Below, piece after piece: positions 5,953 to 18,229 of a stretch of 32,536 nucleotides of DNA. Where the stretch lies: assembly GCA_026392275.1 (NCBI GenBank), contig JAPLCM010000102.1, positions 1 through 32,536 on the forward strand, written 5' to 3'. Under the pieces are notes generated by a model. The model made no database searches and had not been told where the DNA came from. It saw only the letters and a list, made by a program, of their open reading frames with translations. The position numbers and the translations under genes were made by a program. The stretch is from Actinomycetota bacterium (GTDB lineage: Bacteria > Actinomycetota > Thermoleophilia > UBA2241). Each line of letters starts with the position of its first letter. Within the stretch, counting starts at the first letter, position 1.

Positions 5953-7086
5953 GTGTTCGGCAGCATCCTCGGCCAGGAGAGAGCCAAAGAGATGTTTGCG
6001 CGTGCCCTGCGCGAACAGACTCTCAGCCATGCCTACCTGCTGAGCGGCCCCGAGGGCCTGGCCAAGACGGCCTTCGCGCGCGAGCTCGCCGTGACGCTGG
6101 TAAGCGCCTGCGGCGGCTGCGGCGTCTGCCCCGAGTGCGAGCGTGCGCGCCGCGGCATCCACCCCGATCTGCACGTGCTCGAACGCGAGGGCGACCTCAT
6201 TCGCGTCGCGCAGGTAGAGCCCGTGATCGCCGATCTGCGCCTCAAGCCGTTCGCCGCGGGACGCCGCGTCTGGGTCATCCCCGAGGTCGAGTACCTTCAC
6301 CAGGCGGCGGCCAACAAGCTGCTCAGGAGCATCGAAGAGCCACCGGATCTCGTCTGCTTCCTGCTGGTCACCGACCGTCTGGAGCGTGTGCTGCCCACGA
6401 TCGTGTCGCGCTGCCAGCTCGTCGAGTTTCGGCCACTCAGCGACGAGGTGGTCGCGGGGTACCTGCGCGAGAGCCACGGCTTCGACGGCGTCGCCGCCGA
6501 GGCGCTCGCGCGACTAGCGACGGGCTCGGTGGAACGCGCCGCGCGGCTCGCCGCCGACGCTCGCGGCGCCGACCGCCGGGCCGGTTACCTCAAGCAGGCC
6601 GTCGCGCTGCTCGCCGGAGGTAGTGGCGAGAGGGCCGCCGACGCGCGGCGGGCCTTCATCAACGTGCTCGAGCAGCAGCAGGCAGAGATCGCTACTCGAG
6701 TCCAGGCCGACCTCGACGAGCGGCTCGCTGCACTGACTCGGCAGTTTCAGGACAAGCGCGATCTCACCTGGTACGCGAAGCAAGCCGAGGAGCGCGCCAA
6801 ACGCGAGCAGGCGCGCCTGCGGCGCATCGCGGCTCAGGACGCGGTGGACCTCCTCGGCGCCTGGGTACGCGACCTCTGGGTGGTCGCCTGTGGGGCATCC
6901 GATGTACTCTGGAACTGCGACCGCGCCGGCGATCTCGCCGTGGCGGCCGTGGCGACACCGGAGTATTACGCGCGTCTGCTGGCCGTCGTGGCCCGGACGC
7001 GCAAGGATCTGTATCTCAGCATCGACCATAGGCTCGCGTTGCAGGCGTTGTTCGCGCGCTTCGAGGAGGTCGCAGAAAGTGCCTAG
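5953..7086 (+). CDS. holB: DNA polymerase III delta' subunit
   Basis: GTG start; FGSILGQERAKEMFARALREQTLSHAYLLSGPEGLAKTAFA, Zn-cluster CGGCGVCPECERARRGIHPDL, LRSIEEPP, TIVSRCQLVEF. Confidence 0.9.
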   Translation: MFGSILGQERAKEMFARALREQTLSHAYLLSGPEGLAKTAFARELAVTLVSACGGCGVCPECERARRGIHPDLHVLEREGDLIRVAQVEPVIADLRLKPFAAGRRVWVIPEVEYLHQAAANKLLRSIEEPPDLVCFLLVTDRLERVLPTIVSRCQLVEFRPLSDEVVAGYLRESHGFDGVAAEALARLATGSVERAARLAADARGADRRAGYLKQAVALLAGGSGERAADARRAFINVLEQQQAEIATRVQADLDERLAALTRQFQDKRDLTWYAKQAEERAKREQARLRRIAAQDAVDLLGAWVRDLWVVACGASDVLWNCDRAGDLAVAAVATPEYYARLLAVVARTRKDLYLSIDHRLALQALFARFEEVAESA

Positions 7087-7897
7087 AATCGCCAGCGTCG
7101 TGTTTCGCGGCGGCGGCAAGGTCTACCAGTTCGACGCCGGCTCTCTCGAGGTCGAGCCGGGCGATCGCGTTGTCGTCGACACGACCCGGGGCGCCGATTT
7201 CGGACGGCTTGTCAAAGGGCCCGACGAGGTGCCGGTCGAGCAGGCGCCTCGCGGCCTCAAGCGCATCCGCCGCAAGGCCACGCAAGGCGACCTCGACGCC
7301 GTCGCCTCCCACCGCGACGACGAGTTCGAGGCCAAGCGCGTCTGCCGGCAACTCGTCGCCGAATTCGGCCTCGACATGAAGGTCGTCGAGGCGCGCCAGG
7401 CTTTCGAGGGCGGCAAGCTGCTGATCACCTTCTTCTCCGAGGAGCGCGTCGACTTTCGCGAGCTCGTCGGCAAGCTCAACGAGCGCCTGCAGCGGCGCGT
7501 CGAGCTCAAGCAGGTGAGCGCCCGCGACGAGTCGCGCATCGTCGGCGGCTATGGTCCCTGCGGCCGCAGCCTCTGCTGCGCTACCTTCGCCGGCGACCAG
7601 GAGCCTGTGTCCATCCGTATGGCCAAGGACCAGAACCTGCCGCTCAACCCCTCCAAGATCTCCGGCTGCTGCGGTCGCCTCATGTGCTGTCTCAAGTACG
7701 AGCACTTGGTCTACGTGTCGTTTCGCAAACGGGCGCCCAAGCGCGGGGCCATCATCACGACGCCCGGCGGCGAAGGCAAGGTCGTCGAGCTTCTCGCGCC
7801 GGTCGACAGTGTCACGGTCGACCATGGGGACGGGCGCACGGCCACCTACAAACTGGCAGAGCTCGGCGCACCCGCCGATGGGGAGGAACGATCATGA
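7079..7897 (+). CDS. ricT: PSP1-domain protein (YaaT/RicT family)
   Basis: GTG start at 7079 overlapping the holB stop; GPCGRSLCCATF and KISGCCGRLMCCLKYE cysteine clusters typical of PSP1/RicT. Confidence 0.85.
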   Translation: MPRIASVVFRGGGKVYQFDAGSLEVEPGDRVVVDTTRGADFGRLVKGPDEVPVEQAPRGLKRIRRKATQGDLDAVASHRDDEFEAKRVCRQLVAEFGLDMKVVEARQAFEGGKLLITFFSEERVDFRELVGKLNERLQRRVELKQVSARDESRIVGGYGPCGRSLCCATFAGDQEPVSIRMAKDQNLPLNPSKISGCCGRLMCCLKYEHLVYVSFRKRAPKRGAIITTPGGEGKVVELLAPVDSVTVDHGDGRTATYKLAELGAPADGEERS

Positions 7898-8127
7898 GCG
7901 AGACACATGCACTGCTCAACGTCCCGAGCATCTCGTGCAATCACTGCAAGATGGCGATCGAAGGCGCAGTGGGCGCCTTGACGGGTGTGCGCGCGGTGGC
8001 GGTCGACGTGGACGCCAAGAGCGTGGCCATCGATTTCGAGACCGGCGACGTGACGCTCGAGACCATCGAGGCGACCGTCCGGGACGAAGGCTACGAGGTC
8101 GCCGGCCGCCACGTATTCGACAGCTGA
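7894..8127 (+). CDS. Heavy-metal-associated (HMA) domain protein, CopZ-like
   Basis: ATG at 7894 in frame with ORF 7684..8127: MSETHALLNVPSISCNHCKMAIEGAVGALTGVRAVAVDVDAKSVAIDFE (CxxC HMA motif). Confidence 0.85.
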   Translation: MSETHALLNVPSISCNHCKMAIEGAVGALTGVRAVAVDVDAKSVAIDFETGDVTLETIEATVRDEGYEVAGRHVFDS

Positions 8128-8191
8128 CCGGCGCCTCCGGCTGGTTTGGCAAGACTCCAGACGGCTGGTACCATATCGCCTCGTCACCCGT

Positions 8192-8267
8192 GGGCCGTTA
8201 GCTTAGTTGGTAGAGCAGGGGACTCTTAATCCCAAGGTCGAAGGTTCGAATCCTTCACGGCCCACCA
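8192..8267 (+). tRNA. tRNA-Lys (anticodon CTT), CCA encoded
   Basis: GGGCCGTTAGCTTAGTTGGTAGAGCAGGGGACTCTTAATCCCAAGGTCGAAGGTTCGAATCCTTCACGGCCCACCA; folds as a cloverleaf with anticodon loop CTCTTAA and 7-bp acceptor stem GGGCCGT/ACGGCCC. Confidence 0.95.
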
Positions 8268-8268
8268 C
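8223..8268 (+). repeat. attL-like direct repeat (3' half of tRNA-Lys)
   Basis: 46-bp sequence CTCTTAATCCCAAGGTCGAAGGTTCGAATCCTTCACGGCCCACCAC, identical to 15405-15450. Confidence 0.9.
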
Positions 8269-8455: not shown

Positions 8456-11239
8456 GTGAGCGGCCAACTCTCGCCCGCCTCGTTCGCCGGCAAGTGGGAC
8501 GGCAACTCGCGCAGCGAAAGCGCCGCCTCCCAAGAGCACTTCATCGACCTCTGTCGCATGCTCGGCGTGCCGACTCCCAACGAAGCCGACCCCACCGGCG
8601 ATGAGTACGCCTTCGAGAAGGGCGCTGAGAAGATCGATGGCAGAGACGGCTTCGCCGACGTCTGGAAGCGAGGCCACTTCGCCTGGGAGTACAAGGGCAA
8701 GCACAAGGACCTGAAGGCCGCCTACGCACAGCTGCTGCAGTACCGCGAGGCGCTCGACAACCCGCCTCTACTGGTCGTCTGTGATCTCGACCGCTTCGAG
8801 GTCCACACGAACTTCACGAATACCCCGGCGATTGTCCACGCCTTCGACCTCGAACGTCTACGCTCCGACCCTGAGGAGCCGTTGCGCCTCATGCGCGCCG
8901 TGATGCAGCATCCTGAGGAGTTGAGACCCGGGACGACACGCGATGAGCTCACGGCCGAGGCGGCGAACCAATTCGCCTCTCTCGCCGAGCGCCTGCGGGC
9001 CCGCGGGCACGAGCCCCACGAGGTAGCCCACTTTCTCAACAAGCTGCTCTTTTGCATGTTTGCCGAGGATGCGGGCCTGCTGCCGGCCGAGCTTCTCGAA
9101 CGGCTCGCCGCAGCGGCACGAAGTGACCCCTCCGTGTTCAGCGAAGGCCTCGCTGAGCTGTTCGCGACGATGTCCGGCCAGGGTGGCCGCTTCGGCTTCG
9201 AACATATTGACTGGTTCAACGGCGGCCTCTTCGACGGCGGCGCCGTACTGCCGCTCGGCGGCGACGAGATCGCCCTCGTCGAGCGGGTCTCGCGGCTCGA
9301 CTGGTCGCAGGTCGAGCCGGCCATCTTCGGCACCCTCTTCGAGCGTGGCCTCGACCCCAGCAAGCGCAGTCAGCTCGGCGCCCACTACACCGACCGCGCT
9401 TCAATCATGCGGCTGATCGAGCCGGTGCTGCTCGCGCCCCTGCGCCGCGACCTCGAGGAGACCAAGGCACAAGTCGAGACGTTGCTCGCGGAGGATAGGA
9501 AGATCACTGTCCGTACGCCTGTGGAGAGGAACCCACTGGGGGTCTATGGCGGATTCCTCGAGCGCCTCCGAGGGGTGCGCGTGCTTGACCCCGCCTGCGG
9601 CTCGGGCAACTTCCTCTACCTGGCGCTGCTGGCGCTCAAGGACCTCGAGCATGAGGCCAACCTCTGGGCGTCCACAGCGTTGAAGATCCCGATCAAGTTC
9701 CCTGAGGTCGGTCCACAGGCGGTGCTCGGCATCGAGACAAACGCCTACGCCGCCGAGCTTGCCCGCGTCGTCATCTGGATCGGCGAGATCCAGTGGATGC
9801 TCGCCCACGGCTTCGCCTACCAGCGTGACCCCATTCTCAAGCCCCTCGAGACCATCGAGCAGCGCGACGCGCTCCTCGACCTGAGCGCTGCCGTGCAACC
9901 CATCGAGTCGCTCTGGCCGAGTGCGACCGTGATCATCGGTAACCCGCCGTTCATCGGCGGTAAGTTGCTGCGCGCCAACCTCGGCGACGACTACGTCGAG
10001 GCGCTGTTCGCCGTCTATGATGGCCGCGTGCCGCGCGAGGCCGACTTCGTCTGCTACTGGCACGAGAAGGCGCGCGCCATGGTCGAGGCGGGCCAGGTCT
10101 CACGGGTGGGGCTCCTCGCCACGCAGGGCATCCGCGGCGGCGCCAACCGCCGCATCCTCGAACGGATCAAGAAGAGCGGCGACATCTTCCTGGCTTGGGC
10201 CGATGAGCCCTGGGTGCTCGATGGTGCCGCCGTGCACATCTCGTTCGTTGGCTTCGATGACGGCACCGAGCGGGAGCGCTATCTCGACGGTGAGCGCGTC
10301 ACTTCAATCAACGCCAACCTCACGACCGGCATCGACCTGACGGTGGTCAAGCGCTTGCCCGAGAACCGCGGCATCGCCTTCATGGGCGATACGAAGGGCG
10401 GCGCCTTCGACGTCTCGGCCGAGATCGCCGAGCAACTGCTGGCCATGCCCAACCCGGACGGGCGCAGCAACGCCGACGTTGTGCGTCCCTGGGTCAACGG
10501 ACTCGACGTGACCCGCCGTCCGCGCGGCGTGTGGATCATCGACTTCGGCACCGACATGTCGATGCACGAGGCGGCGCTCTACGAGGGCCCCTTCGAGTAC
10601 GTGCGCGAACATGTGATGCCGACCAGGATCACGAACAAGCGTGCCGCGTACGCGGAGCGCTGGTGGCTGCACGTCGAGCCGCGAACGGAGATGCGCAAGG
10701 CCCTCGCTGGCCTCGACCGGTTCGTCGGCACGCCCCGCGTCACCAAGCACCGATTGTTCGCCTGGCTGCCGCTGGCGACCCTGCCGGATAGTCAGATCAT
10801 CGTCTTCGCTCGGGACGATGAATACTTCTTCGGGCTGCTGCATTCGCGTCCACACGAGCTGTGGGCGAGGGGCCTCGGCACCCAGTTGCGCGAGGTCGAA
10901 TCCGGTTTCCGCTATACGCCGACCTCGACCTTCGAGACGTTCCCGTTTCCCGCCGATCCGCCGGCCGACGCCGTTCGCGAGGTGGAGGAGGCAGCCCAGC
11001 AGCTCAACGCTCTGCGCGTTGGCTGGCAGGATCCGCCCGGAGCGTCACCCGGCGAGCTTGCGAAACGCACGCTCACCAACCTCTACAACTCGCCGCCCAC
11101 CTGGCTCTTGCAGGCGCATGAGCGGCTCGACGGCGCTGTCCACGCTGCCTACGGCTGGCCGTACCCCCTGGATGATGACGATGTCATTGCCCGCCTACTC
11201 GAGATCAACCTCACGCGAGGCATGCTTACCGAAGGCTGA
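8456..11239 (+). CDS. MmeI-like type IIL restriction-modification enzyme (fused endonuclease, adenine methyltransferase and target recognition domain)
   Basis: GTG start; N-terminal D-x9-E-x-K nuclease motif (ADVWKRGHFAWEYK), MTase motif I VLDPACGSGNFLY, motif IV GNPPFIGG, LGAHYTD; 927 aa with C-terminal TRD-like region. Confidence 0.85.
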   Translation: MSGQLSPASFAGKWDGNSRSESAASQEHFIDLCRMLGVPTPNEADPTGDEYAFEKGAEKIDGRDGFADVWKRGHFAWEYKGKHKDLKAAYAQLLQYREALDNPPLLVVCDLDRFEVHTNFTNTPAIVHAFDLERLRSDPEEPLRLMRAVMQHPEELRPGTTRDELTAEAANQFASLAERLRARGHEPHEVAHFLNKLLFCMFAEDAGLLPAELLERLAAAARSDPSVFSEGLAELFATMSGQGGRFGFEHIDWFNGGLFDGGAVLPLGGDEIALVERVSRLDWSQVEPAIFGTLFERGLDPSKRSQLGAHYTDRASIMRLIEPVLLAPLRRDLEETKAQVETLLAEDRKITVRTPVERNPLGVYGGFLERLRGVRVLDPACGSGNFLYLALLALKDLEHEANLWASTALKIPIKFPEVGPQAVLGIETNAYAAELARVVIWIGEIQWMLAHGFAYQRDPILKPLETIEQRDALLDLSAAVQPIESLWPSATVIIGNPPFIGGKLLRANLGDDYVEALFAVYDGRVPREADFVCYWHEKARAMVEAGQVSRVGLLATQGIRGGANRRILERIKKSGDIFLAWADEPWVLDGAAVHISFVGFDDGTERERYLDGERVTSINANLTTGIDLTVVKRLPENRGIAFMGDTKGGAFDVSAEIAEQLLAMPNPDGRSNADVVRPWVNGLDVTRRPRGVWIIDFGTDMSMHEAALYEGPFEYVREHVMPTRITNKRAAYAERWWLHVEPRTEMRKALAGLDRFVGTPRVTKHRLFAWLPLATLPDSQIIVFARDDEYFFGLLHSRPHELWARGLGTQLREVESGFRYTPTSTFETFPFPADPPADAVREVEEAAQQLNALRVGWQDPPGASPGELAKRTLTNLYNSPPTWLLQAHERLDGAVHAAYGWPYPLDDDDVIARLLEINLTRGMLTEG

Positions 11240-11451: not shown

Positions 11452-11469
11452 GTTAACGCTCGAGTTAAC
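11452..11469. promoter_or_regulatory. Inverted repeat GTTAAC-N6-GTTAAC at the start of the TA operon, candidate operator
   Basis: GTTAACGCTCGAGTTAAC read directly; lies 6 bp before the TTG at 11476. Confidence 0.45.
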
Positions 11470-11475
11470 TACCGG

Positions 11476-11859
11476 TTGTACCGACTCAGTCAGGGAGAGT
11501 GGCCCGTCCTCGCCATCAGAGATGACCGTGGCCAGTGTCCGGTGCTGCAGGTTCTTCAGGGCGTGGATGGAGCCGAGGAAGAGAAGATGTGGGCGCGTTT
11601 CGACTTGACGGCGGAAAACGGCACTCGCACCAACCCGGAGCACTTCAAGCCCATCCACCGCAAGCGGGGTGCCTACGAGTTCAAGACCAAGCACCTGCGT
11701 GTGTTCTGCTTCAAGGATGGGAAGACCGTCGTCTGCACCCACGCAATGATGAAGAGCCAAGTGAAGAACTACGCACAAGAAGAGAGAAGAGTGCTGGCTG
11801 CAAGAGATGCGTACAGAGCCAGCCCACAGAAGGAAATCGTCGACTACGAGGAGATGTGA
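11476..11859 (+). CDS. RelE/HigB-like toxin (start codon uncertain)
   Basis: HFKPIHRKRGAYEFKTKHLRVFCFKDGKTVVCTHAMMKSQVKNYAQEERRVLAARDAYRAS resembles the RelE/ParE (Gp49-like) core; TGATG junction with a downstream HTH gene. Confidence 0.7.
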   Translation: MYRLSQGEWPVLAIRDDRGQCPVLQVLQGVDGAEEEKMWARFDLTAENGTRTNPEHFKPIHRKRGAYEFKTKHLRVFCFKDGKTVVCTHAMMKSQVKNYAQEERRVLAARDAYRASPQKEIVDYEEM

Positions 11860-12356
11860 TGTCGACACGAGCGATCGCTCGCTATTCGGACGATCCCCTT
11901 GCTCATCAGACCTACTGGCACGAACGCGCGATGCTGCAGTTCACAGAGGAACTGCACCACATGATGAGCGACCGCGGCATGACGCGAAAGCAGCTTGCCG
12001 ACACCCTCGGCACTTCGAAGGCCTATGTCACTCGCGTGCTGCGGGGTGACGCCAACTTCACCCTCGCCACCATGGTCCGGCTGGCCAGCGCGCTGGGCGC
12101 AGAGTTGCGAACGCACATGGCCCCGACTGGGACCATCACGACCTGGTACGACGCTCCGACGCTGCGGACTTGGTCCTCGGAGGGAGGGCAGCGTGTGACC
12201 GGTGCGACGCTCCAGGTCAGTGTCCATCAGCCCACGCTGCAGGTCTGCGAACCGTTTGGCGCCGGCTCTCATGGGCGTGAGTACGAAAGGGAATTCGATG
12301 TCCGACGTGGAGCGGGATCAGAAGGCGACGTTCATGCAACCTCCACTGCAGCTTGA
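11859..12356 (+). CDS. XRE/HigA-type HTH antitoxin with ~80-aa C-terminal extension
   Basis: ATG at 11859 in frame with ORF 11535..12356; MTRKQLADTLGTSKAYVTRVLRGDANFTLATMVRLASALGAEL is a clear HTH_XRE; extension follows residue ~85. Confidence 0.8.
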   Translation: MSTRAIARYSDDPLAHQTYWHERAMLQFTEELHHMMSDRGMTRKQLADTLGTSKAYVTRVLRGDANFTLATMVRLASALGAELRTHMAPTGTITTWYDAPTLRTWSSEGGQRVTGATLQVSVHQPTLQVCEPFGAGSHGREYEREFDVRRGAGSEGDVHATSTAA

Positions 12357-12792
12357 GGAATCCTTCTACGATCGCGTAGAGATCGAGGCGCTCAAGGACT
12401 ATCAGCGACAGGAATACGAGTCCGAGAAGCCCGAGCTGCTCGAAGTCGAGGTTAACCTTGCCAGTCTTGAAGCGGGTCCCGACAAGTGGGAAGTGCGGCT
12501 GGACGTGCGTCTCGAGCCCGACGAGGGCATGCCTCTGCCCCCGTACAGGGTTGAGCTGCGGGCATTCGGCCACTTCCGCGTTCCCGATGGCAGCGAAGAC
12601 GCGGACACGGCGAGAATGGTGGCTGTGAATGGAGCTTCCATTCTCTTTTCATCTATGCGTGAGTACCTGATGCTGGTTACCAGCCGAGGGCCATGGGGGC
12701 CCGTGACGCTGCCCACAATCTCGTTCGCCGGCCTTGAAGTTGAGGAACGCAACATCGAGCCTGCTGCTGTCCAAGAAGGCGAGGGCGACTAG
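12298..12792 (+). CDS. SecB-like chaperone (TAC module third component)
   Basis: ATG at 12298 with GAAAGGG upstream, in frame with ORF 12202..12792; PPYRVELRAFGHFRV...VNGASILFSSMREYLMLVTSRGPWGPVTLPTISFAGL matches the SecB fold pattern. Confidence 0.8.
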   Translation: MSDVERDQKATFMQPPLQLEESFYDRVEIEALKDYQRQEYESEKPELLEVEVNLASLEAGPDKWEVRLDVRLEPDEGMPLPPYRVELRAFGHFRVPDGSEDADTARMVAVNGASILFSSMREYLMLVTSRGPWGPVTLPTISFAGLEVEERNIEPAAVQEGEGD

Positions 12793-12827
12793 CGGGGTCG
12801 TCAGGATCCAGACCTGACCCTGCGTTG

Positions 12828-12868
12828 CCGAGAGGGCCCCGGCAGAAACCGGGCCCCTCTCGGGTTTT
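12828..12868 (+). terminator. Rho-independent terminator downstream of the TAC operon
   Basis: ccgagagggccccgg-cagaaa-ccgggcccctctcgg-gtttt hairpin (one mismatch) plus T-run. Confidence 0.8.
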
Positions 12869-13068: not shown

Positions 13069-13605
13069 ATGGAGGAGAAGCCGCCCACTGGCGCCAATCC
13101 ACCAGGCGCAGATGAGACAGAATTCTTCGTCGGCACACCGCTCGAGATCGTGGGCCTGGAGTCCGCGCTCTCAATGGAGCCGAGGAAGGGTGTGGCAATC
13201 CTCCACTCCTCAATCTCTCCGCCACGTCGCAAAGTGGCCTCCGCGCGGTGGCTTCTTCGACAACTCCAGGAGCACAAGTCCAGCGAGGCGCCGGCTCTGA
13301 TGTTCCTGGAGTGCTTTGTCACCACCCTCCGTTCGGCGACGTTTGCCTTGCAGAAGATGGGGTCAACGACCAAGGGCTTTCGCGCCTGGTACGAAGTGAA
13401 GCGGAAGGAAATGCAGGCGGATCCTAAGTTGCGGTGGCTGGTCAAAATGAGAAACGCCGCGGAGAAGGAGGGCCTCGTCCTGGCTGAGTACGGTCCTGTT
13501 GTGGTCGTCCGTCTGCACAGGAATGGGATGCGCGACGCGGTGGCCCAGGACCCAACTTTCAAGATTGCCGGAGGCCGCGCCCCGTCAAGTGGTGTACGAG
13601 TTTGA
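13069..13605 (+). pseudogene. Hypothetical protein, 5' part; apparently interrupted by the IS256-family element
   Basis: 178-aa ORF (FLECFVTTLRSATFALQKMG...FRAWYEVKRKEMQADPKLRWLVKMRNAAEKEG) whose last codons run into the IS terminus; plausible C-terminal part at 15036-15260. Confidence 0.5.
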
Positions 13606-13634
13606 CCGCAGGGTCATCCTCGCTGCGTGACGCT

Positions 13635-14861
13635 CTACGCTGCGATCATCGCCACCTCCAGGACGGGCTCTGCGGCGCCCGGGGTGAGCGTCTTGGCGAT
13701 GGCCTCGAGGCTCATGTAGCGCCTTCCTGAGTCGGCCCACTCGTCATTCTGCTCGGCCAGCACGGCGCCCACGAGGCGCAGGGCCGCGGCGCGGTTGGGG
13801 AAGATGCCGACCACGTCCGTGCGCCGGCGGATCTCGCGGTTCAGGCGCTCCAGGGGGTTGTTGCTCCAGACCTGACGCCAGACCTCCTTGGGCACCGCCG
13901 TGAAGGCGAGCACGTCGGGGCCCGCCTCCTCGAGCAGTTCGGCGGCGGCTGCGAAGCGCTCCTCGAGCTGGGCGACGACGCGTCCGTGCTGCTCGTGCAC
14001 CTGCGCGGCCTCGGGCTGCGCGAAGATCGAGCGCACCAGGGTGGCGACGAACGGCTGCGCGCTCCGCGGCACGCGGGTCAGCAGGTTGCGCATGAAGTGC
14101 GTGCGGCATCTCTGCCAGCTCGTCCCGGGCAGGGTCGCGGCGATGGCGTCGGTGAGGCCCTGATGGGCGTCGCTGGTCACGAGCACGACCCCCGAGAGGC
14201 CGCGCGCCACGAGGCCGCGCAGGAAGGCCGTCCAGCCGGCGCCGTCCTCGCTGGTGATCAGCTCGAGGCCGAGGCTCTCACGGCGCCCATCGGCGGTGAC
14301 GCCCACGGCGTGCACGCAGGCGACGGAAGCGATGCGCCCGCCTTCTCTGGCCTTGACCACGAGGGCGTCGAGGGCAAGGAACGGGTAGGCGCCCGAGAGC
14401 GGCCGGCTGCGGTAGGCCGCCACGACCTCGTCGAGCGAAGCGACGAGGCGGCTGACCTCGCTCTTGGAGATGCCCTCGATGCCCAGGGTGCGCACCAGCT
14501 TGTCGACGCGCCGCGTACTGACCCCCGCCAGGTAGGCGTCGGCGATCGCCGCCACGAGGGCCTGCTCTGAGCGCTTGCGCGGCGCCAGCAGCCAGTCGGG
14601 GAAGTAGGAGCCGCTGCGCAGCTTGGGCAGGGCCAGATCGATCGTCCCGGTGCGCGTGTCCCAGGCGCGCTCGCGGTAGCCGTTGCGGCGGTTGACGCGC
14701 TGCGGGTGGCGTTCGCCGTGGGCGGCGCCGCAGAGGGCGTCGACCTCGGCGTCCATGAGCGCCTCGGCCATGCGCTTCACCATCGTGCGCAGCAGATCCA
14801 CGTCGCCCTCTTCGATGAGCTTGCGCATCTCTTCCAGACCGTTCATCGTGACCTCGACCAT
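13635..14861 (-). CDS. IS256-family (Mutator type) transposase
   Basis: YPFLALDALVVKAREGGRI, VLVTSDAHQGLTDAIAATLPGTSWQRCRTHFMRNLL, WSNNPLERLNREIRRRTDVVGIFPN: DDE catalytic blocks of IS256 transposases. Confidence 0.95.
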   Translation of the reverse strand: MVEVTMNGLEEMRKLIEEGDVDLLRTMVKRMAEALMDAEVDALCGAAHGERHPQRVNRRNGYRERAWDTRTGTIDLALPKLRSGSYFPDWLLAPRKRSEQALVAAIADAYLAGVSTRRVDKLVRTLGIEGISKSEVSRLVASLDEVVAAYRSRPLSGAYPFLALDALVVKAREGGRIASVACVHAVGVTADGRRESLGLELITSEDGAGWTAFLRGLVARGLSGVVLVTSDAHQGLTDAIAATLPGTSWQRCRTHFMRNLLTRVPRSAQPFVATLVRSIFAQPEAAQVHEQHGRVVAQLEERFAAAAELLEEAGPDVLAFTAVPKEVWRQVWSNNPLERLNREIRRRTDVVGIFPNRAAALRLVGAVLAEQNDEWADSGRRYMSLEAIAKTLTPGAAEPVLEVAMIAA

Positions 14862-14940
14862 CGGGTGTCTCCCTTCAATGTCTTTGGACGGACTTGAAGA
14901 GGATGACCCCGGTGGTCGCTTGCTGCCAACCGGGCCGCCG

Positions 14941-14991
14941 CGCCGGCGCTTGGGGCTGCTCGCCTACGGCTCGCAGCCCCAAGCGCCGGCG
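14941..14991. repeat. Perfect 18-bp inverted repeat hairpin within the IS, upstream of the transposase
   Basis: cgccggcgcttggggctg-ctcgcctacggctcg-cagccccaagcgccggcg. Confidence 0.9.
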
Positions 14992-15035
14992 ACCCCACTC
15001 TCAACTCACTCGTACACCACGTGCTGGGACGCTAA

Positions 15036-15260
15036 CTTGCCGGATACGACTCCTCCAACCTTCTCGGTGACTTGGAGTCTGGATTGGCGAAAGTGTCTGA
15101 AGTCGTGGAGGAGGCTCACGCCACATTCTTCGAAGGCTGCAGGCCCAAGAACGTTCAGCCCTCTATGGCGTACATGCGGGAGAAGGCAGATGGCTCTTGG
15201 GAGCCCATCCAAATAGAAGTGGACTGGAGGCTCGTCCCCTTTGCTGACGGCGACCAGTAG
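15036..15260 (+). pseudogene. 3' remnant of the IS-interrupted hypothetical gene
   Basis: Frame reads *LAGYDSSNLLGDLESGLAKVSEVVEEAHATFFEGCRPKNVQPSMAYMREKADGSWEPIQIEVDWRLVPFADGDQ*; no good start/RBS and an in-frame TAA at 15033. Confidence 0.4.
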
Positions 15261-15404: not shown

Positions 15405-15450
15405 CTCTTAATCCCAAGGTCGAAGGTTCGAATCCTTCACGGCCCACCAC
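15405..15450 (+). repeat. attR-like direct repeat (tRNA-Lys 3' fragment)
   Basis: Identical 46 bp to 8223-8268; lacks the 5' half of the tRNA. Confidence 0.9.
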
Positions 15451-15567
15451 GCTTTCGCGGCAGCGCGCGCCGTACCCAGGACAGTTGCCCAGGCGCGCGC
15501 CGCTCTGCTATCGTTCTCGGGATATGGGCCGCTGTGATGCACTTCACCTGACGGGAGCCCCGACACT

Positions 15568-16362
15568 GTGAACGGCCGCATGAAGCCCGCCGTGGGCCGC
15601 CTCTTGGACGATGCCCGCTTCTCGCTCGCCCCCCGCGGCGGCGAGGACGTCTTGCGCCAAGGCCTCATCATGCTCGCCTGCTACGCGGCCTATGACGTCT
15701 CTCGCGCGGTCGTCGTCGGGCGGGAGGCGGTCGCCATGGCCAACGGTCTCTTCTTCATGAATCTCGAGAAAGCCTTGGGCATCTTCTGGGAGCCGTGGGT
15801 CCAGGGCCGCGTCAGCGCGTTCCCACCCCTCATGGACTTCCTCGTGTGGTCGTATGGCGCCCTCCATCTGCCGCTCATCATGGCAACCATGGTGTGGGTC
15901 TTCACGCAGCGCCGCAGCCACTGGACGAAGTTCCGCAACTGGTTCCTCGCCATGAACTTCATGGCGGTCCTGCTCTACTTTCTGCTGCCCACGGCGCCGC
16001 CGCGCATGATCTTCACCTCTGGCGTCGCCGACATCAGCTACCTGCAGGGCAAGCGGCCGGCCATCTTCGAGAACGGTCTCCTTGCCAACCCGTTCGCGGC
16101 CATGCCCAGCCTGCACTTCGCCTATGCGCTCTTCGTGGCGCTGGCCCTTTTCATGCTGGCCCGCCAGACCTGGCTGCGGTGGGGCGGCTTCGCCTACCCT
16201 GCGCTGGTACTCCTGGCGATCGTCGCCACCGGCAACCACTTCGTCGTCGACGCGGCCGGCAGCGTGCTCGTGCTGCTGGCTGCCTACGTCCTCGCCGCGA
16301 GTGTCCAGACGAGCGACGTCACAGGCACGCGCCCCATGACGGTGCGCGGGCGCGACGGCTGA
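15568..16362 (+). CDS. PAP2 superfamily (phosphatase / inositolphosphotransferase-like) membrane protein
   Basis: Multiple TM segments, AAMPSLHFAYALF and GNHFVVDAAGS PAP2 motifs; GTG start. Confidence 0.8.
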   Translation: MNGRMKPAVGRLLDDARFSLAPRGGEDVLRQGLIMLACYAAYDVSRAVVVGREAVAMANGLFFMNLEKALGIFWEPWVQGRVSAFPPLMDFLVWSYGALHLPLIMATMVWVFTQRRSHWTKFRNWFLAMNFMAVLLYFLLPTAPPRMIFTSGVADISYLQGKRPAIFENGLLANPFAAMPSLHFAYALFVALALFMLARQTWLRWGGFAYPALVLLAIVATGNHFVVDAAGSVLVLLAAYVLAASVQTSDVTGTRPMTVRGRDG

Positions 16363-16363
16363 C

Positions 16364-16978
16364 GTGGCGAATCTCAAGACCCGGTACACCGACGGAGCGC
16401 GCCGCGGCTTTTTCAAGGTCGGCGTCGTGCTTGCCCGGATCGGCGTCACCGCCGACGTGCTCACCGTCTTCGGTCTGTTGCTGCACGTCGGCCTGGTGCC
16501 GCTCGTCCTCACGGGTCACTTCGTGTGGGCCGTACCCCTGGGGATCATCGCGGGTTTCTGCGACGCTCTCGACGGCGCCGTGGCGCGCGCCGGCGCCGGC
16601 TCCACCAAGGCCGGCGCCTTTCTCGATTCGACGACCGACCGGATCTCCGAGCTGCTGGTCTCCGGGGCCCTCGTCGTCTACTTCGCGCGCGAAGCGCAAT
16701 GGTGGCCCACGGTCGGCGTCCTGGTGTTCATGGGGGCCGCGCAGATGGTCTCATACACCCGCGCCCGCGCCGAGGCGCTGGGCGTCGACTGCAAGGTCGG
16801 CTTCATGTCACGCCCCGAGCGCCTCGTCGGGCTCGGCCTGGGCTTCCTGTTCTCCGGCTGGAGCATCGGCAGCACGAGCTTCCTCGTATGGATGGTGTAT
16901 CTGCTCGCGGTGTTGACGTCGTTGACCGTCGTCCACCGCATGGTCCACGTGATGCGCAAGCTCCGCGCGACCGCGTGA
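16364..16978 (+). CDS. CDP-alcohol phosphatidyltransferase (phosphatidylinositol-phosphate synthase-like)
   Basis: DALDGAVARAGAGSTKAGAFLDSTTD fits DxxDGxxARx8GxxxDxxxD; adjacent to Ino1. Confidence 0.85.
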   Translation: MANLKTRYTDGARRGFFKVGVVLARIGVTADVLTVFGLLLHVGLVPLVLTGHFVWAVPLGIIAGFCDALDGAVARAGAGSTKAGAFLDSTTDRISELLVSGALVVYFAREAQWWPTVGVLVFMGAAQMVSYTRARAEALGVDCKVGFMSRPERLVGLGLGFLFSGWSIGSTSFLVWMVYLLAVLTSLTVVHRMVHVMRKLRATA

Positions 16979-17089
16979 TATACTCTCGCGCGTTATCGTT
17001 GAGCTCGCGGGGAGCGCTGCGCACGCCCGCGGGCGGTCCGCATCGAGGCGGCCGCGCACGCGGTCGCCGTCAGTGGAGGTAAACCGACT

Positions 17090-18193
17090 TTGGGTAATCC
17101 GGTACGCGTTGCCATCATCGGCGTCGGCAACTGCGCCTCGTCGTTCGTCCAGGGCGTGGAGTTCTACAAGAGCGCCAAGAAGTCCGATTTCGTGCCCGGC
17201 CTCATGCACCCCGTGCTCGGCGGCTACCACATCCGCGACATCGAGTTCGTGGCCGCCATCGACATCGACAAGAACAAGGTGGGCAAAGATCTCAGCGAGG
17301 CCGTCTTCACCAAACCCAACAACACGGTGAAGTTCTGCGACGTGCCCGCGAAGGGCGTCAGCGTCGCCCGCGGCATGACCCACGACGGCCTCGGCAAGTA
17401 CCTCTCGCAGATCATCCAGAAGGCTCCCGGCGCCACCGCCGACATCGTCGGCATCCTCAAAGAGACTCAGACCGACGTGGTGGTCAACTATCTGCCCGTG
17501 GGCAGCGAAGAGGCCACCAAGTGGTACACAGAGCAGATCCTCACGGCCGGCTGCGCCCTGGTCAACTGCATCCCGGTGTTCATCGCCCGCGAGCCCTACT
17601 GGCAGAAGCGCTTCGTCGAGGCCGGCGTGCCCGTCATTGGCGACGACATCAAGAGCCAGGTCGGCGCCACCATCGTGCATCGCGTGCTTACGCGCCTCAT
17701 GCGCGAGCGCGGCGTCAAGCTCGAGCGCACCAGCCAGCTCAACGTGGGCGGCAACACCGACTTTCTCAACATGCTCGAGCGCGAGCGCCTCGAGTCGAAG
17801 AAGATCAGCAAGACCAACGCTGTCACCAGCCAGCTCGACTACGACATGGGGGCCGACAACGTGCACATCGGCCCCAGCGACTACGTCAAGTGGCTCGACG
17901 ACCGCAAGTGGGCCTATATCCGCATGGAGGGACGCACCTTCGGCGACGTGCCTCTCAACATCGAGCTCAAGCTCGAGGTCGTCGACTCACCGAACTCGGC
18001 GGGCATCGTCATCGATGCCGTGCGCTGCGCCAAGATCGGCCTCGACCGTGGGCTCGCCGGTTCGCTCGAGGGCCCCAGCAGCTACTTCATGAAATCGCCG
18101 CCGGTGCAGCACCCCGACGATCAGTGCCGCCGCATGACCGAGGAATTCATCGCCGGCGACGGCATCGGCGCCACGGCCGTCTGCCAAGGCTGA
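17090..18193 (+). CDS. ino1: Inositol-3-phosphate synthase
   Basis: [75 protein letters not shown] start after GTGGAGGT. Confidence 0.93.
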
Positions 18194-18229
18194 CGCCCGC
18201 GTTCGCGGCGTTCGCCGCACCAGGTCTTC

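What the first reader, a model, noticed from the sequence alone, without database searches (positions are those of the whole stretch)
11452..12868. Toxin-antitoxin-chaperone (TAC) operon: RelE/HigB-like toxin, HTH antitoxin with C-terminal extension, and SecB-like chaperone
Three tightly overlapping genes (TGATG junction; the chaperone start lies ~58 nt inside the antitoxin gene) end at a strong terminator. The third encodes a SecB-fold-like protein and the antitoxin has ~80 residues beyond its HTH, where a chaperone-addiction (ChAD) region would sit. TAC systems are known (M. tuberculosis HigB1-HigA1-SecB-like Rv1955-1957), but this toxin looks quite different in sequence, and pairing with an MmeI-like RM enzyme on one island is unusual.
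Basis: partly seen in the sequence, partly recalled or inferred. Interest (0 to 1): 0.85.

Follow-up and report, generated by a model that had tools for sequence, protein, structure and literature searches.

The report
Chaperone-guarded toxin-antitoxin operon on tRNA island
This is a three-gene bacterial self-poisoning switch (an RNA-cutting toxin, its antidote, and a helper protein that keeps the antidote alive), a known kind of system carried here on a small inserted defence island; comparing it with relatives shows that the antidote's self-destruct tag and the start of the helper gene are written in the same DNA letters.

Summary
The finding is real. Window 11453-12863 is a toxin-antitoxin-chaperone (TAC) operon: a Gp49/HigB-type RelE-fold toxin, an XRE HTH antitoxin with a C-terminal extension, and a SecB-like chaperone, ending at a strong terminator. 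The genome is a Thermoleophilia MAG with no other SecB found. Two start sites need correcting: the toxin most likely starts at TTG 11476 (11452 is GTT), the chaperone at ATG 12334. It is a new member of a known kind (HigBA-SecB, as in M. tuberculosis); the toxin has the same Pfam family and fold as the tuberculosis one. Comparison with 19 further TACs added: (1) a TTAAC-N6-GTTAA operator at the toxin start in all 13 members of this HigBA subfamily; (2) the antitoxin extension is absent from close two-gene relatives; (3) 17 of 20 TAC antitoxins end in Ala-Ala or Val-Ala, a ClpX-type degron; (4) in 11 of 20, spanning three antitoxin families, the antitoxin stop falls at the same place, sharing bases with the chaperone's L-x-L-E codons, which I found nowhere reported. 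The operon sits on a 7.2-kb tRNA-Lys island (46-bp att repeats, empty site in a congener) beside an MmeI-like restriction enzyme. Chaperone dependence itself is inferred.

The parts
11453..11468 (.). Predicted operator TTAAC-GCTCGA-GTTAA for autorepression by the antitoxin
   Evidence: Only match in the window with up to 1 mismatch, 0.04 expected. Best match 8-10 of 10 at the toxin start in all 13 HigBA(C) loci of this subfamily; 10/10 in about 3e-5 of shuffled upstream regions
11476..11859 (+). Toxin, Gp49/HigB family RelE-fold mRNA endonuclease (127 aa from TTG; CTG 11449 possible)
   Evidence: PF05973 5.5e-7; AlphaFold model pLDDT 89.8, PDB matches HigB 6af4 and M. tuberculosis HigB1 7nbu; invariant E68, R75, F79, K93
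11859..12356 (+). Antitoxin, XRE helix-turn-helix (residues about 27-83) plus an extension of about 75 residues
   Evidence: HTH_31 1e-9, HTH_3 1.9e-9; extension missing in five SecB-less relatives
12138..12173 (+). Candidate chaperone-binding (ChAD) core TTWYDAPTLRTW, residues 94-105
   Evidence: Trp at this place in TACs L003, L004, L013, L029 and L080; compare W108 and Y114 of HigA1 (PMC6377645). Binding not tested
12346..12357 (+). Double-coded junction: antitoxin ...Ala-Ala-stop (GCA GCT TGA, 12348-12356) out of frame over chaperone Leu-Gln-Leu-Glu (CTG CAG CTT GAG)
   Evidence: Same stop position in 11 of 20 TACs; CTT followed by GAR/GAY or AGA in all 11; CTT is 3.7% of Leu codons in six window genes
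12334..12792 (+). SecB-like chaperone (152 aa; alternative start ATG 12298)
   Evidence: PF02556 1.4e-7; profile to E. coli SecB 2.5e-11; model matches SecB and M. tuberculosis Rv1957 5mtw, 3.2e-6; only SecB found in the genome
12828..12863 (+). Intrinsic terminator closing the operon
   Evidence: -30.2 kcal/mol, z -4.2, followed by GTTTTCGT
8223..8268 (+). attL: 3' end of tRNA-Lys (8192-8267), left end of the island
   Evidence: 46-bp exact repeat; empty site in same-genus genome G401
15405..15450 (+). attR: right end of the 7.2-kb island
8456..11239 (+). MmeI-like type IIG restriction enzyme-methyltransferase, island cargo next to the TAC
   Evidence: Pfam MmeI domains; PADLOC REase_MTase_IIG 8.8e-269

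Best explanation
This is a SecB-dependent type II toxin-antitoxin operon (HigBA-SecB TAC). Shown: the gene order, family membership of all three proteins, the conserved operator-like dyad, the antitoxin extension, its Ala-Ala end, and the island setting. Inferred: the toxin is a ribosome-dependent mRNA endonuclease; the antitoxin binds the toxin and represses the operon through TTAAC-N6-GTTAA; without chaperone its extension keeps it unfolded and exposes the Ala-Ala end to ClpXP; the SecB-like tetramer binds the extension around W96-W105 and protects it. Anything that draws the chaperone away, such as phage proteins in CmdTAC, would let ClpXP remove the antitoxin and free the toxin. The setting (a tRNA island with a restriction enzyme) makes phage defence or island maintenance the likeliest role; which of the two is not determined.
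For: Pfam hits over cut-off for toxin, antitoxin and chaperone. Model matches to HigB and to SecB, including M. tuberculosis HigB1 and Rv1957. SecB found in only 7 of 399 genomes of the class, and the only SecB found in this genome lies in this operon, so it is not a housekeeping export chaperone. Same three-gene order in a same-genus genome and in other Actinomycetota and Pseudomonadota. Extension present in TAC antitoxins and absent in five SecB-less relatives. 17 of 20 TAC antitoxins end in AA or VA. Conserved operator-like dyad, alike in sequence to HigA operator sites of M. tuberculosis HigBA3 (PMC7340258) and P. aeruginosa HigBA (PMC6987408). clpP and a contig-cut clpX lie side by side in the genome. 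Mechanism known for M. tuberculosis HigBA1-SecB (PMC5105189, PMC6377645, PMC8165232) and CmdTAC (PMC11618068).
Against: No experiment on this operon. The toxin lacks an ATG/GTG where relatives have one, so its expression may be weak or the operon may be decaying, although the reading frame and catalytic residues are intact. Beyond an aromatic/Trp pattern I see no similarity of the extension to the tuberculosis one. Three of 20 TAC antitoxins lack the AA/VA end.
Confidence: 0.88

Rival explanations
1. An ordinary two-gene HigBA module that happens to lie in front of a SecB gene; the chaperone does general work and the antitoxin does not need it.
For: HigBA-type antitoxins without SecB are common in this family of genomes (L015, L020, L021, L025, L026).
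Against: Those relatives lack the extension and the AA end; the chaperone gene overlaps the antitoxin gene and shares its transcript unit; SecB occurs in under 2% of the class; the arrangement recurs across phyla.
Confidence: 0.06
2. A decaying TAC whose toxin start codon has been lost (TAC codon where relatives have ATG), so the operon no longer works as a toxin-antitoxin system.
For: No ATG/GTG at the place where relatives start; TTG 11476 has a poor Shine-Dalgarno; an IS256-type element lies nearby on the island.
Against: The full toxin frame with conserved E, R, F and K residues, the exact operator, the terminator and both partner genes are intact; the relative L008 also seems to use a TTG just after its operator.
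Confidence: 0.12
3. A phage-sensing, CmdTAC-like defence system with the chaperone as the sensor of a phage protein (a more specific version of the best explanation).
For: The chaperone weakly matches PADLOC PD-T4-9_C, E=2.3e-5; defence-island setting; restriction genes beside relatives.
Against: The toxin is Gp49/HigB, not an ADP-ribosyltransferase; no phage trigger can be tested here.
Confidence: 0.35

Closest known systems
M. tuberculosis HigB1-HigA1-SecB-like (Rv1955-1956-1957)
   Same: Gene order, HigB toxin fold, XRE antitoxin with C-terminal extension carrying Trp/aromatic residues, hydrophobic C-terminal degron (Val-Ala there, Ala-Ala here), SecB-fold chaperone
   Different: Low identity (toxin 15-16% and chaperone 17-19% in fold alignments); here the antitoxin ends 23 nt inside the chaperone gene within L-x-L-E; different extension sequence; no SecB-binding data
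S. pneumoniae HigBA (6af3/6af4)
   Same: Closest solved toxin by profile (3.1e-9) and by fold
   Different: To my knowledge no chaperone and no antitoxin extension (not tested here)
CmdTAC / PD-T4-9 anti-phage TAC (PMC11618068)
   Same: SecB-like chaperone guards an antitoxin that ends in a ClpXP signal
   Different: The toxin there is an ADP-ribosyltransferase acting on mRNA; here a HigB-type RNase
MqsRA-SecB TACs (L005, L009, L038, L044, L067)
   Same: Chaperone third; in two of them exactly the same antitoxin-stop/chaperone junction
   Different: MqsR toxin and MqsA antitoxin; no TTAAC-N6-GTTAA operator in the three examined

Membership tests
Toxin-antitoxin-chaperone (TAC) systems | Toxin, antitoxin and SecB-like chaperone in one operon | tested here: met
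   recurs in relatives
Toxin-antitoxin-chaperone (TAC) systems | Antitoxin carries a C-terminal extension absent from two-gene homologs | tested here: met
   165 aa against 97-118 aa in five SecB-less relatives
Toxin-antitoxin-chaperone (TAC) systems | Chaperone-binding (ChAD) site with aromatic residues in the extension | tested here: inconclusive
   Trp conserved at the start of the extension in five related TACs, compare HigA1 W108/Y114 (PMC6377645); binding not testable here
Toxin-antitoxin-chaperone (TAC) systems | ClpX-type degron sequence at the antitoxin C-terminus | tested here: met
   Ends STAA; 17 of 20 TAC antitoxins end AA/VA; degradation itself not tested
Toxin-antitoxin-chaperone (TAC) systems | Antitoxin activity depends on the chaperone | not testable with these tools
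   Needs a rescue assay
HigB (Gp49/DUF891) RelE-superfamily toxins | Family profile, fold and catalytic residues | tested here: met
   PF05973 over cut-off; fold match; invariant Glu, Arg, Phe, Lys, compare E66, R77, F93, K95 of HigB1 in PMC9098466
SecB chaperones | SecB family profile and fold | tested here: met
CmdTAC / PD-T4-9 | ADP-ribosyltransferase toxin | tested here: not met
   The toxin is Gp49/HigB

The most novel reading that the evidence does not exclude
In many TACs the antitoxin's ClpX-type degron and the start of the chaperone are written in the same nucleotides, out of frame ([CT]TG-CNG-CTT-GAR = chaperone L-x-L-E = antitoxin A-A-stop). This junction is kept across HigA, HI1420-type and MqsA antitoxins, so extension, degron and secB can move onto new toxin-antitoxin pairs as one cassette, and the degron cannot readily be lost without changing the chaperone.
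Probability: 0.5. Interest if true: 0.6.

Novelty: new member of a known kind. Interest (0 to 1): 0.42.

Why it matters
It extends chaperone-addicted toxin-antitoxin systems to Thermoleophilia and places one on a demonstrable mobile defence island beside a restriction enzyme. The shared-base junction offers a concrete, testable answer to how chaperone addiction spreads between unrelated toxin-antitoxin families, a transferability shown by engineering in PMC5105189, and why the degradation tag persists.

Tried and rejected
The 11452 start was rejected: it is GTT. The first genome-contig scan with a diverse alignment (A3) found no usable pattern; a narrower alignment gave four loci. The viral-contig scan found no relative, phage records none, plasmids two remote ones. 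The idea that the AA end is only a by-product of the overlap was rejected as the whole explanation: five TACs without the deep overlap (L008, L009, L010, L033, L039) also end in AA or VA. The idea that AA/VA is universal was rejected too: L067 (NG), L080 (EA) and L081 (CG) differ, and reverse primers printed in PMC5105189 imply other ends (my reading) for the Geobacter, Vibrio and Methylomonas TACs. The chaperone tree hints at exchange between HigBA and MqsRA (94/92 and 91/90 support) but is too weakly supported to prove it. No integrase was recognised on the island.

Full report
Observation. The window holds, on the + strand, three overlapping open frames followed by a strong hairpin terminator. 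The toxin stop and antitoxin start share TGATG (11857-11861). The chaperone frame opens inside the antitoxin gene. Pfam hits are over the curated cut-offs for all three proteins: Gp49 PF05973 5.5e-7, HTH_31 1e-9, SecB PF02556 1.4e-7.

Start sites. Position 11452 is GTT. In most relatives the toxin starts 0-3 nt after a TTAAC-N6-GTTAA dyad, at an ATG or GTG aligned with window codon TAC 11470. The nearest start codon is TTG 11476; the relative L008 also appears to use a TTG just past its operator. CTG 11449 with an upstream ggaagg cannot be excluded. The chaperone's ATG 12334 (MQPPLQLEES) aligns with the start of its same-genus homolog (MAQPPLLLEES) and of other relatives, so it is preferred over 12298.

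Toxin. The AlphaFold model (pLDDT 89.8) matches S. pneumoniae HigB 6af4 (1.3e-5) and the M. tuberculosis HigB1-ribosome complex 7nbu (3.2e-4). A profile of the family finds HigB 6af3 at 3.1e-9. In a five-member alignment E68, R75, F79 and K93 are invariant; I map these to E66, R77, F93 and K95 of HigB1, named as catalytic or core residues in PMC9098466. The function as a ribosome-dependent mRNase is inferred from the family.

Chaperone. The model (pLDDT 79.5) matches SecB and Rv1957 5mtw (3.2e-6); the profile matches E. coli SecB at 2.5e-11. Only one SecB was found in the 2.9-Mb genome, and only 7 of 399 genomes of the class have any. So this is not the general export chaperone.

Host. The genome is a MAG; the same-genus genome carrying the nearest TAC (G402) is a Thermoleophilia MAG, AlinenLipids_bin-3389.

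Antitoxin. Five HigA relatives from the family or the same genome that have no SecB next to them stop at 97-118 aa shortly after the HTH; TAC relatives run to 129-165 aa. In several, the extension begins with a Trp motif (window TTWYDAPTLRTW; relatives TVWRD, TVWID, THWFD, IRWVD, VRWSE). In HigA1 of M. tuberculosis W108, R110 and Y114 of the ChAD contact the chaperone (PMC6377645). That the window extension binds in the same mode is inferred.

Degron. I collected 20 distinct TACs (near-identical pairs L005/L006 and L044/L046 counted once): window, L003, L004, L005, L007-L011, L013, L029, L032, L033, L038, L039, L044, L067, L068, L080, L081. Seventeen antitoxins end in AA or VA; the exceptions are L067 (NG), L080 (EA) and L081 (CG). 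None of the five SecB-less relatives does (AR, AR, TA, PR, PR). The C-terminal ClpX degron is already known for HigA1 (Val-Ala, PMC8165232) and stated for other TAC antitoxins including CmdA (PMC11618068), so this extends a known trend. The genome has clpP next to a clpX cut by the contig end.

Junction. In 11 of the 20 (window, L003, L004, L005, L007, L011, L013, L029, L032, L038, L080) the antitoxin stop falls at the same codon of the chaperone, within L-x-L-[E/D/R]. Ten of these encode A-A-stop there; L080 encodes E-A-stop. The second Leu is always CTT, which is 3.7% of Leu codons in six window genes, and L004 uses AGA (Arg) so that the stop is TAG. A T in that third position is of course required to make the stop, so the informative fact is the shared position, not the codon. 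These loci include XRE HigA antitoxins, an HI1420-type antidote (PF21716) and MqsA (PF15731). Five TACs without this deep overlap still end in AA or VA, so the end is not merely a by-product of the overlap. A chaperone tree groups HigBA loci L032 and L011 with MqsRA loci L038 and L005 (94/92 and 91/90), hinting at exchange of toxin-antitoxin cores, but support is moderate. My literature searches gave no paper that I saw describing this junction; the held library lacks most subscription papers.

Operator. TTAAC-N6-GTTAA occurs once in the window with up to one mismatch (0.04 expected). The best match at the toxin start is 10/10 in 7, 9/10 in 5 and 8/10 in 1 of the 13 HigBA(C) loci of this subfamily, and at most 7/10 in three MqsRA and two other HigBA loci. 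It resembles the -10 palindrome ATAACCTAGAGGTTAT of M. tuberculosis HigBA3 (PMC7340258) and the TTAAC...GTTAA sites of P. aeruginosa HigA (PMC6987408). Autorepression is therefore very likely but untested.

Island. A 46-bp exact repeat of the tRNA-Lys 3' end lies at 8223-8268 and 15405-15450. In the same-genus genome G401 the flanks are contiguous (L097 1-1491 = window 6777-8267; L097 1447-4237 = window 15405-18194; about 90% identity), which is the empty site. The island of about 7.2 kb carries the MmeI-like enzyme (PADLOC 8.8e-269), the TAC, an unknown ORF and an IS256-type transposase; no integrase was recognised. In the congener G402 the TAC lies just downstream of McrBC, L007 has an Mrr-type endonuclease downstream and L005 a Swt1-like HEPN gene. 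Restriction and defence neighbours are thus recurrent.

Verdict. A real TAC operon, a new member of a known kind, with a mechanism that follows from the studied ones. The added interest lies in the conserved double-coded junction and the demonstrated island.

Noticed in passing
8223-8268 and 15405-15450: 46-bp exact tRNA-Lys att repeats bound a 7.2-kb island with a restriction enzyme and the TAC but no recognisable integrase; a same-genus genome has the empty site.
   Followed up: yes
13069-15260: An ORF of unknown family (178 aa from 13069) seems to be interrupted by an IS256-type element (transposase 13635-14861, inverted repeats near 13590 and 15019); a possible remainder reads at about 15060-15260.
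   Followed up: partly
L005, L006, L009, L038, L044, L067: MqsRA-type TACs in Actinomycetota and Pseudomonadota; two of them share the exact antitoxin/chaperone junction of the window's HigBA TAC.
   Followed up: partly
L033:41-1854 and L039:558-1881: TAC-like operons whose toxin-position genes have no Pfam hit; L033 is preceded by a HipA-like-looking protein (by eye only), and L039 has a CmdTAC-like gene order with an antitoxin ending in KAA. Possible other TAC toxin types.
   Followed up: no
L028:3-1931: McrBC restriction genes lie directly upstream of the same-genus TAC.
   Followed up: yes
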